DNA of 64,000 bases from Spiroplasma citri (lineage in GTDB: Bacteria > Bacillota_I > Bacilli_A > Mycoplasmatales > Mycoplasmataceae), in NCBI RefSeq assembly GCF_001886855.1, contig NZ_CP013197.1, positions 930,001 to 994,000 of the forward strand, given 5' to 3'. The notes under the pieces are model-generated. The model was not told where the DNA came from and did no database searches. It saw nothing but the letters and a program-made list of their open reading frames with translations. This document shows positions 6,433-59,938 of the stretch, piece after piece. Both the position numbers and the translations under genes were made by a program. How positions within the stretch are numbered: the stretch's first letter is position 1; the number at the start of each line of letters is the position of its first letter.

Positions 6433-6538
6433 TATTTATTATAATCGATCATATATCTTAGTTAAGGCACACTAGCTTTTATGTGAATTAAATAAATAAT
6501 TTTATTGTTTATTTTTACACTATACACTGTTTACAAAT

Positions 6539-6793: not shown

Positions 6794-6904
6794 TTAAAAT
6801 TTGTGAACAGTGTATAGTGTAAAAATAAACAATAAAATTATTTATTTAATTCACATAAAAGCTAGTGTGCCTTAACTAAGATATATAATCGATTATAATA
6901 AATA

Positions 6905-53500: not shown

Positions 53501-54025
53501 ATGAAAAAAAGATTAAGTTTTTTAGGAGCAATTACATTATTAGGAACAAGCACAACAAGTTTAGTTGCTTGTAATAATATACCACAATATAACGAAGATG
53601 AATTACAACAACTAAAACAAGAAAACCAAATATGTACAAATTGCAAAGAAATAAAAGAAAACTTAGAATGAATAGCACCACAAGAAAAACCATTTAATCA
53701 AGTTGATAATAAATGATATTATGTAGTTTGTCGCGGCAATGAAAATGATGTTTGAGAAATTGTTAAATTTAATAATAATGAATTTCCAAAACAAAAAATA
53801 CATTATAAAGGTAAAGAAAAAATAACAATTAATTATGGAAATTTTAGTGGCTTTCAAAGATTAAAAGATTTGTATTTTATTTCTAGAGATTCATTGACAA
53901 TTAAATATTGGTCTGAAGACAGTGGAAAATATTTTAAAGCAGTTTATCGTTGAAATGGCGGAGAAGAAAATTTACCTGATTTAGTTGTTAATAATGATGG
54001 TAATGTAAAAGTTAATGGCGAATAA
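53501..54025 (+). CDS. Lipoprotein sharing its C-terminal domain with the phage tail protein
   Basis: 174 residues. Signal peptide MKKRLSFLGAITLLGTSTTS and lipobox LVAC, lipidated Cys at residue 24. Residues ~65-160 (DNKWYYVVCRGNENDVWEIV ... FKAVYRWNGGEE) are almost identical to the C-terminal part of the phage protein encoded at 54552-56183 on the other strand. The final residues (NLPDLVVNNDGNVKVNGE) differ. It is the only plus-strand gene in the phage region and has its own terminator (AAAAAAACAATTT / AAATTGCTTTTTT). A superinfection-exclusion role is a guess. Confidence 0.8.
53690..53965 (+). repeat. Inverted-repeat copy 1 of the shared tail/lipoprotein domain
   Basis: About 270 bp nearly identical, in reverse orientation, to 54722-54995. 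It covers the domain shared by the lipoprotein and the tail protein. About 760 bp separate the copies. Confidence 0.85.
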
Positions 54026-54551: not shown

Positions 54552-56183
54552 TTATCAAATTAATGGTTCTCAACTTCCAAATGCTCTTAAACCAATAGCG
54601 GCCGTTGTCACAATACCACGCTGTGCTTTTTCTCATGTTTTAAAATCTTTTCATACCCAAAATTTAATCATCCCACCATCATATGTTAATATTGGTGATC
54701 ATTCTTCGCCACCATTTCAACGATAAACTGCTTTAAAATATTTTCCACTGTCTTCAGACCAATATTTAATTGTCAATGAATCTCTAGAAATAAAATACAA
54801 ATCTTTTAATCTTTGAAAGCCACTAAAATTTCCATAATTAATTGTTATTTTTTCTTTACCTTTATAATGTATTTTTTGTTTTGGAAATTCATTATTATTA
54901 AATTTAACAATTTCTCAAACATCATTTTCATTGCCGCGACAAACAACATAATATCACTTATTATCAACGGTATTAAATGGTTTATCATCTGGTGTCACTT
55001 CTTTTAATCTGCTTTTGATATATTTAAAACTACTTTCTATTTTGTATGGCATTTCTCTAATTCTTTTGTCTAGTTGTGCTGTTTTTTGATTCATTTTTTC
55101 CATTTCTTTATTTCATTTTTTATTGTGTTCTTCTATTTTTTCTCGGGCATATTCGCAAAAATTAATAAAATTGTTGGGGTTTTTGATTGATTGATAACGA
55201 ATGGGAACGCGTGCGGTATATTCTCAATTAAAGGATTTTATTTTTTCTCCTTTTAGGGGTAAATTAAAACTAAGAATAGGGAATTCATAAATTCCGTCTT
55301 TATGTCTTGTGTTTAAGTTATCTTGGGTTAATCTTCCTTTGTCTGTTCATACAAAATATTCGCTGGCACATTTATTTTGATAAATTGCTTGGTATTTAAA
55401 ATCATTTACTTGATTAATGTTATCGATTATGGCGGTTGCTATTGTTTTTGAATTATCGTTTCAAGTCATGGCACTTTTAATATTTTTTCATGGTTTGTTT
55501 TCTTCTTCCTTGGTTTTTTCAAAATAGAATTTATTGTCAATTCCGCTTGGTTCAACTTCGTCAATTTTAGTGTTAATGGGGCATTGTTCTAATAATTCTG
55601 TTAATTTTTCAATTTGTTCGCTTTTGTTTTCACCTAAACTTTCAATAAATTTTTTATTAATATATTGGTAGTTTTCATCTGGGTTGTCTATATCGGGGAT
55701 TGGATATACTAATGGTGCTTTTGACATATCTATTTTAATTGTTAAAAATATTGTTGTTGTTGTTTCTGCTTGGTTTTTTGCATAGGGAATTAAGTCGTTG
55801 ATATCGTTTGTGGTGTTGTTTTCTACTTTAATCATTCTTCCGCAAATGCTTAAATAAAAAAATGGTATTTCTTTGTTTCCTTTTTTTGTTTTTATTTTTA
55901 CTTGAATTCCGTTGTCTTCATATTTGAATTCTGCTTCTAATTTTTCTTGTTCGCCAAATCCGTAAAATAAAAAACCAGTTGAATTGTTATCACATAGTTT
56001 TAACATTTCTTCGTTATAATTATCGCTATTGCCTAATAAGTTTATAGCGTTTTTATTGCTTAATTCTTTATTAGCATAGTAGGGGATTGTTTGGTTTCTT
56101 AACAAAAAATCATAGTATATTGCTTGGTCGCGGTCTGTTAAATAATCTTCTGTATTGTCAAATGTTATAAATCTAAATGCCAT
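54552..56183 (-). CDS. Phage tail/host-contact protein with the shared C-terminal domain
   Basis: 543 residues. The N-terminal 230 residues (MAFRFITFDNTEDYLTDRDQ, AIYYDFLLRNQTIPYY...) look like a structural baseplate protein with many beta strands. The middle has a Lys/Glu-rich helix (INFCEYAREKIEEHNKKWNK, EMEKMNQKTAQLDKRIREM), probably a trimeric stalk. The C-terminal domain from DNKWYYVVCRGNEND on is also found in the lipoprotein at 53501-54025. Its end (TWEKAQRGIVTTAAIGLRAF, GSWEPLIW) is unique. Position last in the tail module suggests a receptor-binding protein. Confidence 0.7.
54722..54995 (-). repeat. Inverted-repeat copy 2 of the shared tail/lipoprotein domain
   Basis: Counterpart of 53690-53965. 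Identity begins near the VDNKWYYVV codons and ends after RWNGGEE. Confidence 0.85.
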
Positions 56184-56801: not shown

Positions 56802-56894
56802 AATTTAACTACCTTATTATTTTCATTATTATCTAACATAAAAAATCACCAGCCTTAACAATAATAATTAACCCCATCATTTATTGTCGTCGTG

Positions 56895-56923
56895 ATGATA
56901 CCGTCATTAAAAATATTTGTCAA
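56895..56923 (-). promoter_or_regulatory. Promoter copy 1 (TTGACA-17-TATCAT), upstream of the tail genes
   Basis: On the minus strand TTGACA (56918-56923), 17 nt, TATCAT (56895-56900). It is part of a ~36-bp sequence repeated at 57211 and 57676. It would drive the tail gene at 56801. Confidence 0.8.
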
Positions 56924-56925
56924 AT

Positions 56926-57202
56926 AAAAAAAGACAATTTATATTGTCTTTAAAATAGTTTATGTTATAATACATACAAATTTGTATTTATTCAGTCGTA
57001 GCAAATTCCTTAAATATTATGCGAATAATCTTCTTGTCTGCTTGTTTGTGGTAGTCAATTTGCACTCGGTTATGAGTTAAATTCATTCAAGTAGTTCAAC
57101 ATTATTTATTTACTATAATACGACTGAATAAATACAAATTTTTTAATTTTAATAATTATAATTACTATTGTTTAATTTTCAATAAGTAATAATCATTACT
57201 TA
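56926..57202 (-). ncRNA. Candidate structured RNA with a 23-bp closing stem
   Basis: It begins just after promoter copy 2 and ends at a terminator AAGACAAT / ATTGTCTT plus T-run (56926-56950). A perfect 23-bp stem joins 57119-57141 to 56978-57000 and encloses 118 nt. Inside, GCAAATT (57001-57007) pairs with AATTTGC (57057-57063), and ACTC/GAGT can form a small hairpin. The 5' end starts with a 10-bp AT hairpin. No frame of useful length exists. Function unknown. Confidence 0.65.
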
Positions 57203-57210
57203 TTATCGTG

Positions 57211-57239
57211 ATGATACCGTCATTAAAAATATTTGTCAA
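57211..57239 (-). promoter_or_regulatory. Promoter copy 2, upstream of the 23-bp-stem RNA
   Basis: TTGACA (57234-57239), 17 nt, TATCAT (57211-57216) on the minus strand, identical to copy 1 over the core. Confidence 0.8.
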
Positions 57240-57419
57240 ATATATAATAAATGAAAATTTGTGTATATAATACCATATTTTTTTATTTTTCCTTTAATTT
57301 TATAAAAACATGCTACAATTAAATAGCAAGTGATGTTGCGAGTTATTCTAGGTTCTACTTGCAAGTTTAAATAAAGAAAAGAAACCTTGTCAGTCAATAG
57401 TCTGTGCGATACTATAAAT

Positions 57420-57449
57420 AAAAAAAGAGATATTAAAATCTCTTTTTTT
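57420..57449. terminator. Repeated-type terminator 1
   Basis: AAAAAAAGAGAT ATTAAA ATCTCTTTTTTT. It ends the RNA that starts at promoter copy 3 and would also stop plus-strand transcripts. Confidence 0.75.
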
Positions 57450-57668
57450 AGATGAGGAAGCGACTACGCTCTTACCAATAGCGGACAAGTCCATATGGCT
57501 CATCTATAATTTTGTATTGTTTAATAACTATTATATCTAGTTTTCATTCAATAGTTAATTCAAAGGTCAAAATAAGTAAAATTCCTTTTGGTTTACGATT
57601 AAAAGCAATAGAACACCATAGGCCATAAAGACCATAGACTTTTCTTACAACTAGAAACATAACTTATT
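57422..57668 (-). ncRNA. Candidate structured RNA A with the shared 56-nt module
   Basis: Minus-strand transcript from promoter copy 3 to terminator 1, about 245 nt. The 3' part (57450-57505) is a module closed by AGATGAG / CTCATCT with a conserved interior (GGACTTGTCC hairpin, GGTAAGAGC). The same module occurs at 60094-60150 with compensatory changes. The 5' two thirds have no homologue in the window. No conserved open frame. Confidence 0.65.
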
Positions 57669-57675
57669 TGTGGTG

Positions 57676-57704
57676 ATGATACCGTCATTAAAATTATTTG
57701 TCAA
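57676..57704 (-). promoter_or_regulatory. Promoter copy 3, upstream of RNA A
   Basis: TTGACA (57699-57704), 17 nt, TATCAT (57676-57681). The spacer differs from copies 1 and 2 by one base (ATTA for TTTA). Confidence 0.8.
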
Positions 57705-57714
57705 ATAAACAAAT

Positions 57715-57741
57715 AAAAAAGAGATAATTAAATCTCTTTTT
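57715..57741 (-). terminator. Repeated-type terminator 2
   Basis: AAAAAAGAGATAATTAAATCTCTTTTT. It includes the stop codon of the gene at 57728-58150 in its stem. Confidence 0.75.
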
Positions 57742-58150
57742 CGATTTTTTTTAATTCTTCTTTTAAAAAGATATGATATATTTCTTGTATATGCGGAGAA
57801 TTAAAACATTTTTCTAAAATTTCTTTACGATAAATATAATTTATCTTTGAACAATTTATTATTGTATATTTTTCTAATCTTCATTTTTCCATTTTTCTTA
57901 TTTCAGTATCTTTTCTGTCTAATCTTGCATAACACTCTTTTTTTAATTTAGTATCTGGTGTAGGTGGAATTTTGATATAATTTTTTTCATTCTTATTAGG
58001 AATTTTCGTTGTTAATCTTATAAGATGATAGTAATATCCGTCAAAAAACAATGGAATTAAAAGTGATTTTTTGGGTTTACCATTTTTAATATCTAAAACA
58101 TTATCAAAATTATCTATAAAAACAGAAACTAAATTATCATTATAATTCAT
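57728..58150 (-). CDS. Candidate toxin partner of Panacea protein 1
   Basis: 140 residues starting MNYNDNLVSVFIDNFDNVLD. The middle (KKSLLIPLFFDGYYYHLIRL, TTKIPNKNEKNYIKIPP) is beta-rich and loosely recalls the small SH3-like barrel of PemK/ToxN-type RNases, followed by helices (WRLEKYTIINCSKINYIYRK). No catalytic residues can be assigned. The start overlaps the end of the Panacea gene by 11 nt, typical of toxin-antitoxin pairs. The toxin role is inferred from this context. Confidence 0.5.
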
Positions 58151-58781
58151 AATTATTTTTACATTCTATTTTGTATAATTTTAATATTTCTTCATAATCT
58201 TCATCTGTTTTTGGAATTCCTATTTCATAACTAAAATCAAAAAAAACGCTTTTTTTACTGTTTTCAACTGCTTTTTCTCATGCTTTTTCTCATGATTTCA
58301 TTATTCTATGAGAATTATCGCTTAATAAATTTGTATTTTTAAACTTTAATATTCATTCTGATGCTTCTTTTAATATTTTTTTTTCATTTTCAGAAAAATA
58401 TTCTCAATTAAAATAATCTTCAAAATAAGTGGGTGATAAATTTTTAAAACTAAATAATATTTTATTTAAATCATTGTCTTTTTCTTTTTTTAATACACTA
58501 TAAGTAAAGAATTGAAAAGTTCCATTTTCATTAATAAATTTTGATATTTTGTAAGGAACTGGCCCCCATTTTAGGGCTACAAAATTTAAAATAAAAAAAT
58601 GACCTGAAAATTCTTTTGCAGCTTTTCATTCTAAAAAAGATAAAAATTTAAAAACATGCATTTTATAAATTTTTTTTTTATTTTGAAATGCTGAATTTAG
58701 TAGAAACAATATTGCCATTTCTATTTTGTTTGCTTCTATTGGAGATATTTTTAAATATTTTGATAGCATAGTTTCCTTCAT
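58140..58781 (-). CDS. Panacea-domain (SocA/DUF4065-like) protein 1
   Basis: 213 residues. KMHVFKFLSFLEWKAAKEFS, then FVALKWGPVPYKISKFI, is the Panacea signature (K-x-x-K-x-L-x-x-x-D and A-x-K-x-G-P-V-P). The C-terminal LLSDNSHRIMKSWEKAWEKA matches the L-S-x-x-S-H-x-x-x-x-W end of the domain. Panacea proteins act as antitoxins that neutralise very different toxins, or as SocA-type proteolytic adaptors. TATAAT lies upstream next to repeated-type terminator 3. The downstream overlapping gene is the likely partner. Confidence 0.78.
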
Positions 58782-58820
58782 CTTAATCACCACTTTTTAT
58801 TTACTAGTAAATTATACAAT

Positions 58821-58849
58821 AAAAAAAGAGATAATTAAATCTCTTTTTT
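58821..58849. terminator. Repeated-type terminator 3
   Basis: AAAAAAAGAGAT AATTA AATCTCTTTTTT between the two Panacea cassettes. Confidence 0.75.
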
Positions 58850-58850
58850 A

Positions 58851-59010
58851 ATTATGTATTTGCTAATGCTTTTAAACTTTTAATTAATTCTTTATGATTA
58901 TAAATATCTTGTTCTCATTCATTAAATTTAGATTCCAATAATTTATAATCTTTTTTTTCATAATTTTTGACATATTTAATCAACCCCTTATCGCCATCAT
59001 CATACCATAT
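58851..59010 (-). CDS. Small charged helical peptide, possible remnant
   Basis: An open frame without ATG encodes DDGDKGLIKYVKNYEKKD followed by a charged coiled-coil-like helix (LLESKFNEWEQDIYNHKELI) and ends at LKALANT. Possible starts are a TTG after AAGGGG or a now-lost upstream start. A 29-residue ATG frame overlaps it. Probably the tail of a damaged phage gene; weakly supported. Confidence 0.3.
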
Positions 59011-59031
59011 TTATTATATTTTTAAATTAAA

Positions 59032-59406
59032 TTAATTGTTATTTTGATAATATTTATCAGGATCAAAAATTATTGCAAAGAAAATATTATTAACTAAAAC
59101 ACCATAAATTCTTTCCTTATCTCCAACTCTTAAATAATCATATTTTTTAATATCTTGTTCAATATCTTTATTAAAATGTGATTTTACATAATTTATTAAT
59201 TCTAAAGGAATTTTTGGGGGAAGGCGTGATTTATTTGTTTCAATATTTGAATAACCACAAGATTGTCTTGAACCTTGTATTAAATTTCGTAAAGAATAAT
59301 TACAAATTTTTTTAATTTCATTTAGAAAATCATTATTTATTTTTTTAGTTTTATTTATATATGCAAAATTGAAAAATATTTTTTTATCTAACTTATCTAA
59401 ATTCAT
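59032..59406 (-). CDS. Candidate toxin partner of Panacea protein 2
   Basis: 124 residues: a helical N-terminus (NLDKLDKKIFFNFAYINKTK), then LRNLIQGSRQSCGYSNIETN and a C-terminal beta part ending RIYGVLVNNIFFAIIFDPDK. The last motif (R-x-x-G-x-x-V-x-N-x-F-x-x-x-x-x-D-P) is seen in small phage and toxin-like proteins, but I cannot name the family. It starts 16 nt after the Panacea gene and ends before terminator 3. It is not similar to the other partner, as expected for Panacea systems with exchangeable toxins. Confidence 0.5.
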   Translation of the reverse strand: MNLDKLDKKIFFNFAYINKTKKINNDFLNEIKKICNYSLRNLIQGSRQSCGYSNIETNKSRLPPKIPLELINYVKSHFNKDIEQDIKKYDYLRVGDKERIYGVLVNNIFFAIIFDPDKYYQNNN

Positions 59407-59422
59407 ATTATTTAATTTTATA

Positions 59423-59938
59423 TTAAATTAATTGTTCAAGTTGGTTTAATTTTTCTTGAAAATAATATAAAATTTTATCATTATTAATTTCTTCATTATT
59501 TTTTGTTTCTTTTCATGGACCTTCTATATGTGATAAAGAAACTAATTCAAAAGCACTATATTTACTAAAATATATAAAAACTCTTTCAATAAATTCTAAT
59601 TCTTCATTGGTAAATTTTTTTTCAATTTCGTGTATTTTTATTTCGTTAAAATTTTCAAGATTATCTTTTTCTATGTATGATTTTCCATTTTTTCTTAGTA
59701 AAAAATACAATTCTTCTAAAACTGGGCCATATGTTCATGCTTTATATTTTTCTTTTATTATTTTTTTATTAAATTTAGCCATAAATAAACCTTCTATAAA
59801 ATACATTAATTTTTGTATTTGCAAATTTGTCATTCCAAAAATTTCTTCATTATTAATTTCTAATTTTTTTTGAATTTTATAGTTTTCATCTAATAGTAAA
59901 TATAAAAAATCTTCAATTTTAATTCCTTTGCATTTCAT
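59423..59938 (-). CDS. Panacea-domain (SocA/DUF4065) protein 2
   Basis: 171 residues. TNLQIQKLMYFIEGLFMAKF, then WTYGPVLEELYFLLRKNG, gives the canonical L-Q-K-L-x-Y ... A-W-x-Y-G-P-V block. FIERVFIYFSKYSAFELVSL followed by SHIEGPWKET is the canonical Y-x-x-x-S-A-x-x-L-x-x-x-x-H-x-E-x-P-W ending. This is the clearer of the two. GGGGAG lies upstream, and a TATAAT directly after terminator 4. A small gene follows on the same transcript. Confidence 0.88.

What the first reader, a model, noticed from the sequence alone, without database searches (positions are those of the whole stretch)
56926..57202. Separate phage RNA closed by a perfect 23-bp stem
Between promoter copy 2 and a terminator lies a ~275-nt stretch with no frame. 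56978-57000 is the exact reverse complement of 57119-57141, enclosing 118 nt with further pairing (GCAAATT/AATTTGC). Such long terminal stems are seen in packaged or processed RNAs, in retron msr-msd and in RNase III substrates. No reverse transcriptase is nearby.
Basis: partly seen in the sequence, partly recalled or inferred. Interest (0 to 1): 0.65.

Follow-up and report, generated by a model that had tools for sequence, protein, structure and literature searches.

The report
Late phage RNA with exchangeable loop
Viruses living in the plant bacterium Spiroplasma citri carry a small stretch of DNA that very probably makes a separate RNA together with their structural genes, always clamped shut by the same 23-base-pair stem but holding one of three quite different loops; what the RNA does is not known.

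Summary
A perfect 23-bp inverted repeat (56978-57000 / 57119-57141, 118-nt spacer) lies in a frame-poor gap of a tailed Spiroplasma citri prophage; 60 shuffles of the window never exceeded 17 bp. The likely transcript runs on the MINUS strand: a 32-nt phage promoter block (57240-57209), a 5' hairpin, the stem-closed part and a T-tailed terminator (56951-56925), about 280 nt. The promoter pattern occurs 26 times in this genome and 25 times in S. phoeniceum; the sites I read drive one of three phage operons or a non-coding cassette. I compared 22 complete copies of the element from S. citri chromosome and plasmids and from S. phoeniceum. The arms are nearly invariant; the loop comes in three types (A, B, C), two of them in tandem in one prophage. 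The interior folds no better than shuffles, so only the closing stem, plus perhaps a 6-bp inner helix, is credible structure. Retron is excluded (no reverse transcriptase in the genome). No Rfam family matches and no antisense target was found. Best reading: an undescribed phage non-coding RNA whose stem is a processing or stability element and whose loop is the variable effector. The function is inference.

The parts
57209..57240 (-). Phage promoter block TTTGACAAATATTTTTAATGACGGTATCATCA driving the RNA (-35 TTGACA 57239-57234, -10 TATCAT 57216-57211)
   Evidence: pattern occurs 26 times in this genome and 25 in S. phoeniceum, control pattern 0
57180..57205 (-). 5' hairpin of the leader (AATAAGTAAT GATT ATTACTTATT); predicted transcript start near 57205
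   Evidence: fold of the transcript; same leader in cassettes with other payloads
57119..57141 (-). 5' arm of the 23-bp stem P1 (as read on the minus strand)
56978..57000 (-). 3' arm of the 23-bp stem P1 (as read on the minus strand)
57108..57113 (-). 5' side of inner helix P1b (GUAAAU)
   Evidence: weak: one pair with a two-sided change, not above shuffles
57001..57006 (-). 3' side of inner helix P1b (AUUUGC)
57007..57107 (-). Variable loop, here type A; types B and C elsewhere. In type A the variable columns cluster at 57053-57063
   Evidence: no excess structure
56925..56951 (-). Terminator: AAAGACAAT/ATTGTCTTT hairpin followed by T7 on the minus strand
   Evidence: sequence, repeat in other cassettes
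56963..56971 (+). Extended -10 site TGTTATAAT pointing into the stem; possible plus-strand promoter with start at about 56978 (rival reading)
   Evidence: present in all 22 copies compared including type C; -35 TTGTCT 56944-56949
56893..56924 (-). Next copy of the same promoter, driving the 200-aa ORF and tail-region gene
57416..57705 (-). Second cassette upstream with its own copy of the promoter and terminator (AAAAAAGAGATATTAAAATCTCTTTTTT), probably also non-coding
   Evidence: its 62-codon frame is interrupted in S. phoeniceum

Best explanation
It is a small non-coding RNA of a tailed Spiroplasma phage, transcribed on the minus strand from the promoter shared by the phage's structural operons and ended by its own terminator (about 280 nt). 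Shown by sequence: promoter block, terminator, 23-bp stem, constancy of the arms, exchange of the loop. Inferred: the phage turns the RNA on with its structural genes; RNase III or a similar enzyme recognises the two-turn stem and releases or trims the part of about 120 nt it encloses, or the stem guards the RNA; the loop, little structured and fast-evolving, is the part that meets the target (an RNA or a protein). Conflict between co-resident phages, or with a host defence, would drive loop exchange. The target is unknown.
For: Dedicated promoter of the phage set and terminator with no gene between. Stem kept in 22 complete copies while the loop is replaced: types A, B, C. Same promoter, 5' hairpin and terminator bracket unrelated payloads in other prophages, one of them strongly folded (z -6.7), so the frame looks like a non-coding cassette. 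All 16 non-Watson-Crick standard cells in P1 and P1b are G-U on the minus strand and would be A-C on the plus strand. Precedent for a prophage small RNA released by RNase III: DicF (reference in PMC12197685).
Against: No expression data. Copies are closely related, so constancy of the arms may be recent descent or gene conversion; copy C is the only distant one and lacks the promoter block upstream. Arms are constant in sequence, not only in pairing, which a DNA site would explain as well. No target found. The wobble argument rests on about four independent changes. The interior is not structured.
Confidence: 0.5

Rival explanations
1. The functional RNA is on the plus strand: an extended -10 promoter (56963-56971) starts it at the first base of arm 1 (about 56978), and arm 2 followed by a T-run ends it, giving a hairpin RNA of about 168 nt with flush ends. 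The minus-strand transcript would be its antisense partner or sponge.
For: TGTTATAAT is present in all 22 copies and belongs to the block shared with copy C, unlike the minus-strand promoter. The predicted start coincides with the arm. The interior folds slightly better on the plus strand (z -1.0 to -1.7 for type A).
Against: Wobble pairs fit the minus strand. The terminator would have a 118-nt loop and an A+T-rich stem. In copy C the T-run is set apart from the 23-bp stem. TATAAT-like sites are common in this A+T-rich DNA.
Confidence: 0.22
2. The repeat acts as DNA: a binding or recombination site, or the remnant of a small inserted element, and is transcribed only incidentally.
For: Arm sequence itself is conserved. 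Copy C is flanked by the palindromic repeat ATACAAATTTGTAT and G001 has what looks like an empty site.
Against: The end sequence TTTATTCAGTCGTA occurs in the 15 genomes searched only at these copies, so no transposon family shares it. No copy with an inverted interior was seen. It does not explain the dedicated promoter and terminator.
Confidence: 0.2
3. The loop encodes a small peptide and the stem is a translation control.
For: Short frames are open under code 4 in all three loop types (read from the sequences).
Against: No ribosome-binding site; no ATG, GTG or TTG start in the type-B frame; most changes within type A are non-synonymous; similar segments of A and B fall in different frames and C's frame is in another register (read).
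Confidence: 0.05

Closest known systems
Prophage-encoded small RNAs (reviewed in PMC12197685), e.g. DicF, and anti-sRNAs of E. coli prophages (PMC4104026)
   Same: Small non-coding transcription unit in an accessory stretch of a prophage; DicF is released by RNase III
   Different: No sequence relation; expressed from the promoter of the structural operons; one constant stem with exchanged loops; no target known
Antisense RNAs with conserved stems and variable loops (plasmid copy-control RNAs such as RNAI, phage immunity RNAs such as P1 c4) - known from general knowledge
   Same: Constant stem, specificity-like variability at the loop, several variants in one cell
   Different: No complementary target found apart from the element's own other strand; far longer closing stem; no Rfam match
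Retron msr-msd RNA
   Same: Long inverted repeat closing a non-coding transcript
   Different: No reverse transcriptase in the genome; interior unstructured and not conserved
MITE-like elements
   Same: Terminal inverted repeats of 13-23 bp, copy C flanked by direct repeats, an empty counterpart in G001
   Different: Ends shared with no transposon; always in the same phage context; promoter and terminator attached

Membership tests
Phage-encoded small RNA | Encoded in a phage or prophage | tested here: met
   Tail, tape measure, portal and terminase genes around it
Phage-encoded small RNA | Own promoter and terminator, no protein frame | tested here: met
   By sequence only:
Phage-encoded small RNA | A stable RNA is made | not testable with these tools
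   No RNA data at hand
Retron | Reverse transcriptase gene next to the RNA | tested here: not met
   No RVT_1 match in the whole genome; control genomes ring
Antisense immunity or copy-control RNA | Complementarity of the loop to a target RNA | tested here: inconclusive
   Loops A and B against the genome: none convincing. Phage scan: A and C no better than shuffles, B beat 11 of 11 shuffles, marginal
Rfam families (6S, phi29 pRNA, c4, msr and others) | Match to the covariance model | tested here: not met
   Nothing covers 56926-57202 at E <= 10
RNase III substrate | About two helical turns of perfect duplex | tested here: met
   23 bp kept in all copies
RNase III substrate | Paired cuts in the stem by RNase III | not testable with these tools
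   Needs RNA and enzyme
MITE or insertion element | Terminal repeats shared with copies at unrelated sites or with a transposase | tested here: not met
   TTTATTCAGTCGTA occurs only at these copies

The most novel reading that the evidence does not exclude
A phage RNA system with a constant clamp and exchangeable specificity loops, expressed with the structural genes, by which co-resident Spiroplasma prophages recognise or silence one another or a defence system; loops A and B in tandem in one prophage would be two specificities carried together.
Probability: 0.15. Interest if true: 0.8.

Novelty: new member of a known kind. Interest (0 to 1): 0.42.

Why it matters
Phage-encoded small RNAs are known mostly from enterobacteria, and I found none described for Spiroplasma phages in the open papers searched. 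Here a phage appears to devote copies of its structural-gene promoter to several non-coding cassettes, one of which keeps its stem almost to the letter while swapping its loop. If the RNA is made, the natural loop variants are a ready-made specificity experiment.

Tried and rejected
Retron: no reverse transcriptase in the genome. Known RNA families: none. Peptide in the loop: different registers, no ribosome-binding site. MITE: ends found nowhere else. Other long inverted repeats with a spacer of about 100-116 nt in Spiroplasma loci (L099, L101, L037, L097) turned out to be separate high-copy repeats and show no relation to this element by BLAST. Antisense targets: short matches of loops A and B in the own genome were inspected: B's 17-nt match is sense, not antisense, to the neighbouring minus-strand ORF, and A's is a sense match inside a gene. 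Duplex scan of the phage: nothing for A and C, marginal for B. Pairing with the neighbouring conserved small-RNA candidate: no better than shuffles. Distant relatives: none in viral contigs by pattern, none in the phage collection, none with a covariance model in the G001, G007 and G011 phage loci. A first promoter pattern had the wrong gap and was repeated correctly. The 15-bp inverted repeat of the 459-nt S. phoeniceum payload spans an internal terminator-like hairpin, so I do not count it as the same architecture.

Full report
WHAT WAS CHECKED. The inverted repeat 56978-57000 / 57119-57141 is exact and encloses 118 nt. It is far beyond chance: 60 dinucleotide shuffles of the window gave no arm over 17 bp. 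The stretch folds at z -6.4. No ORF of 50 aa or more lies inside it.

WHERE IT IS. The neighbourhood is the late end of a tailed prophage: tape measure and tail genes, then two Panacea/SocA-domain genes each followed by a small ORF, then two cassettes without a convincing gene, then a 200-aa ORF and a further ORF, all on the minus strand. The same phage is found in S. citri plasmid records with annotated terminase, portal, capsid and tail genes.

DIRECTION AND LIMITS. The promoter pattern occurs 26 times in S. citri, 25 in S. phoeniceum, 3 in G001 and 2 in G007; the reversed control pattern gives none. Read from the sequence downstream, the sites in S. citri and S. phoeniceum fall into three phage operons (terminase side, portal, 200-aa ORF) and non-coding cassettes. 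In one plasmid copy of the phage there are exactly three close matches: portal operon, this RNA, 200-aa ORF operon. I call it a late promoter because of the genes it drives; its timing is not measured. The transcript would start near 57205, pass a 5' hairpin and the stem-closed part, and end at the terminator 56951-56925.

RELATIVES. Seven complete copies and one truncated copy lie in this genome, five in S. phoeniceum, and more in S. citri plasmids. I compared 22 complete copies, 15 of them distinct with their flanks. Three loop types exist: A (14 copies), B (7), C (1). A and B share flanks, arms and about 17-25 nt next to the arms, then diverge; one prophage carries an A and a B unit in tandem (G000:C1:1344373 and 1344698). 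C is about 76% like type A, has the same arms, a different flank on one side and a stem that can be extended to about 40 bp with two imperfect pairs. Within type A, six of the 22 variable columns fall in an 11-nt stretch of the loop, 57053-57063. Conservation falls from the arms to the tip.

STRUCTURE. In P1, 22 of 23 pairs never vary and one is U-A or U-G. RNAalifold adds an inner helix P1b (57108-57113 with 57001-57006) with one pair seen as G-C, G-U and A-U; the changes are not above shuffles. All 16 non-Watson-Crick standard cells of P1 and P1b are G-U on the minus strand; on the plus strand each would be an A-C mismatch. This favours the minus strand, on about four independent changes. 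The interior has no excess structure on the minus strand and only a weak tendency on the plus strand.

CASSETTE FRAME. The same promoter, 5' hairpin and terminator also bracket unrelated payloads: 459 nt in S. phoeniceum (z -6.7, with an internal terminator-like hairpin) and 261 nt in S. citri (z -2.2). A second kind of cassette, at 57705-57416 in the window, has its own leader; its 62-codon frame in S. citri is interrupted in S. phoeniceum, so it too is probably non-coding.

RIVALS. A plus-strand RNA starting exactly at arm 1 from an extended -10 site is possible, and that site belongs to the block shared with copy C. A DNA-level site is possible because the arm sequence itself is conserved, copy C is flanked by palindromic direct repeats, and G001 has an empty counterpart; but the repeat is found nowhere else, no inverted interior was seen, and it does not explain promoter and terminator. 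A peptide is unlikely.

FUNCTION. No target was found for A or C; B's best duplex in the phage is marginal; host matches are unconvincing. The mechanism - stem as RNase III or stability element, loop as effector - is inference from anatomy and from known precedents such as DicF (reference in PMC12197685).

VERDICT. A real, recurrent, apparently undescribed phage RNA candidate. It can be filed only as 'phage-encoded small RNA'; the constant clamp with exchanged loops is the interesting part. Searches of open papers found no description for Spiroplasma, which is weak evidence because most subscription journals are not held.

Noticed in passing
57311-57447 (+): A nearly invariant intergenic element (96-100% over about 120 bp in 14 places of three Spiroplasma genomes) with an extended -10 site TGCTACAAT/TGCTATAAT and a bidirectional terminator: a second small-RNA candidate, on the plus strand, next to the hairpin RNA or upstream of SocA-domain genes.
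   Followed up: partly
57449-57503 (-): Compact three-way-junction-like fold closed by GATGAG/CTCATC at the end of the second cassette; absent from the S. phoeniceum version of the cassette.
   Followed up: no
6451-6531 and 6806-6886: 81-bp perfect inverted repeat with a 274-nt spacer, the longest in the window.
   Followed up: no
L037 2266-2435; L099 8787-8928; L101 10006-10144; L097 30531-30696: Interspersed repeats with perfect arms of 13-27 bp and spacers of about 98-116 nt; the arms differ between families while an inner motif (ATCTTTA ... TAAAGGT) recurs; dozens of copies in Spiroplasma genomes, one match near the end of Spiroplasma phage MaM-2019a.
   Followed up: partly
57728-59938 (-): Two Panacea/SocA-domain genes, each followed by a small ORF of unknown family: likely toxin-antitoxin modules in the accessory stretch of the prophage.
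   Followed up: partly
53501-54025 (+) and 54552-56183 (-): The plus-strand lipoprotein-like ORF and the minus-strand 543-aa ORF share a stretch of about 100 residues (from NKWYYVVCRGNENDVWEIVKFNNNEFPKQ), an inverted duplication.
   Followed up: no
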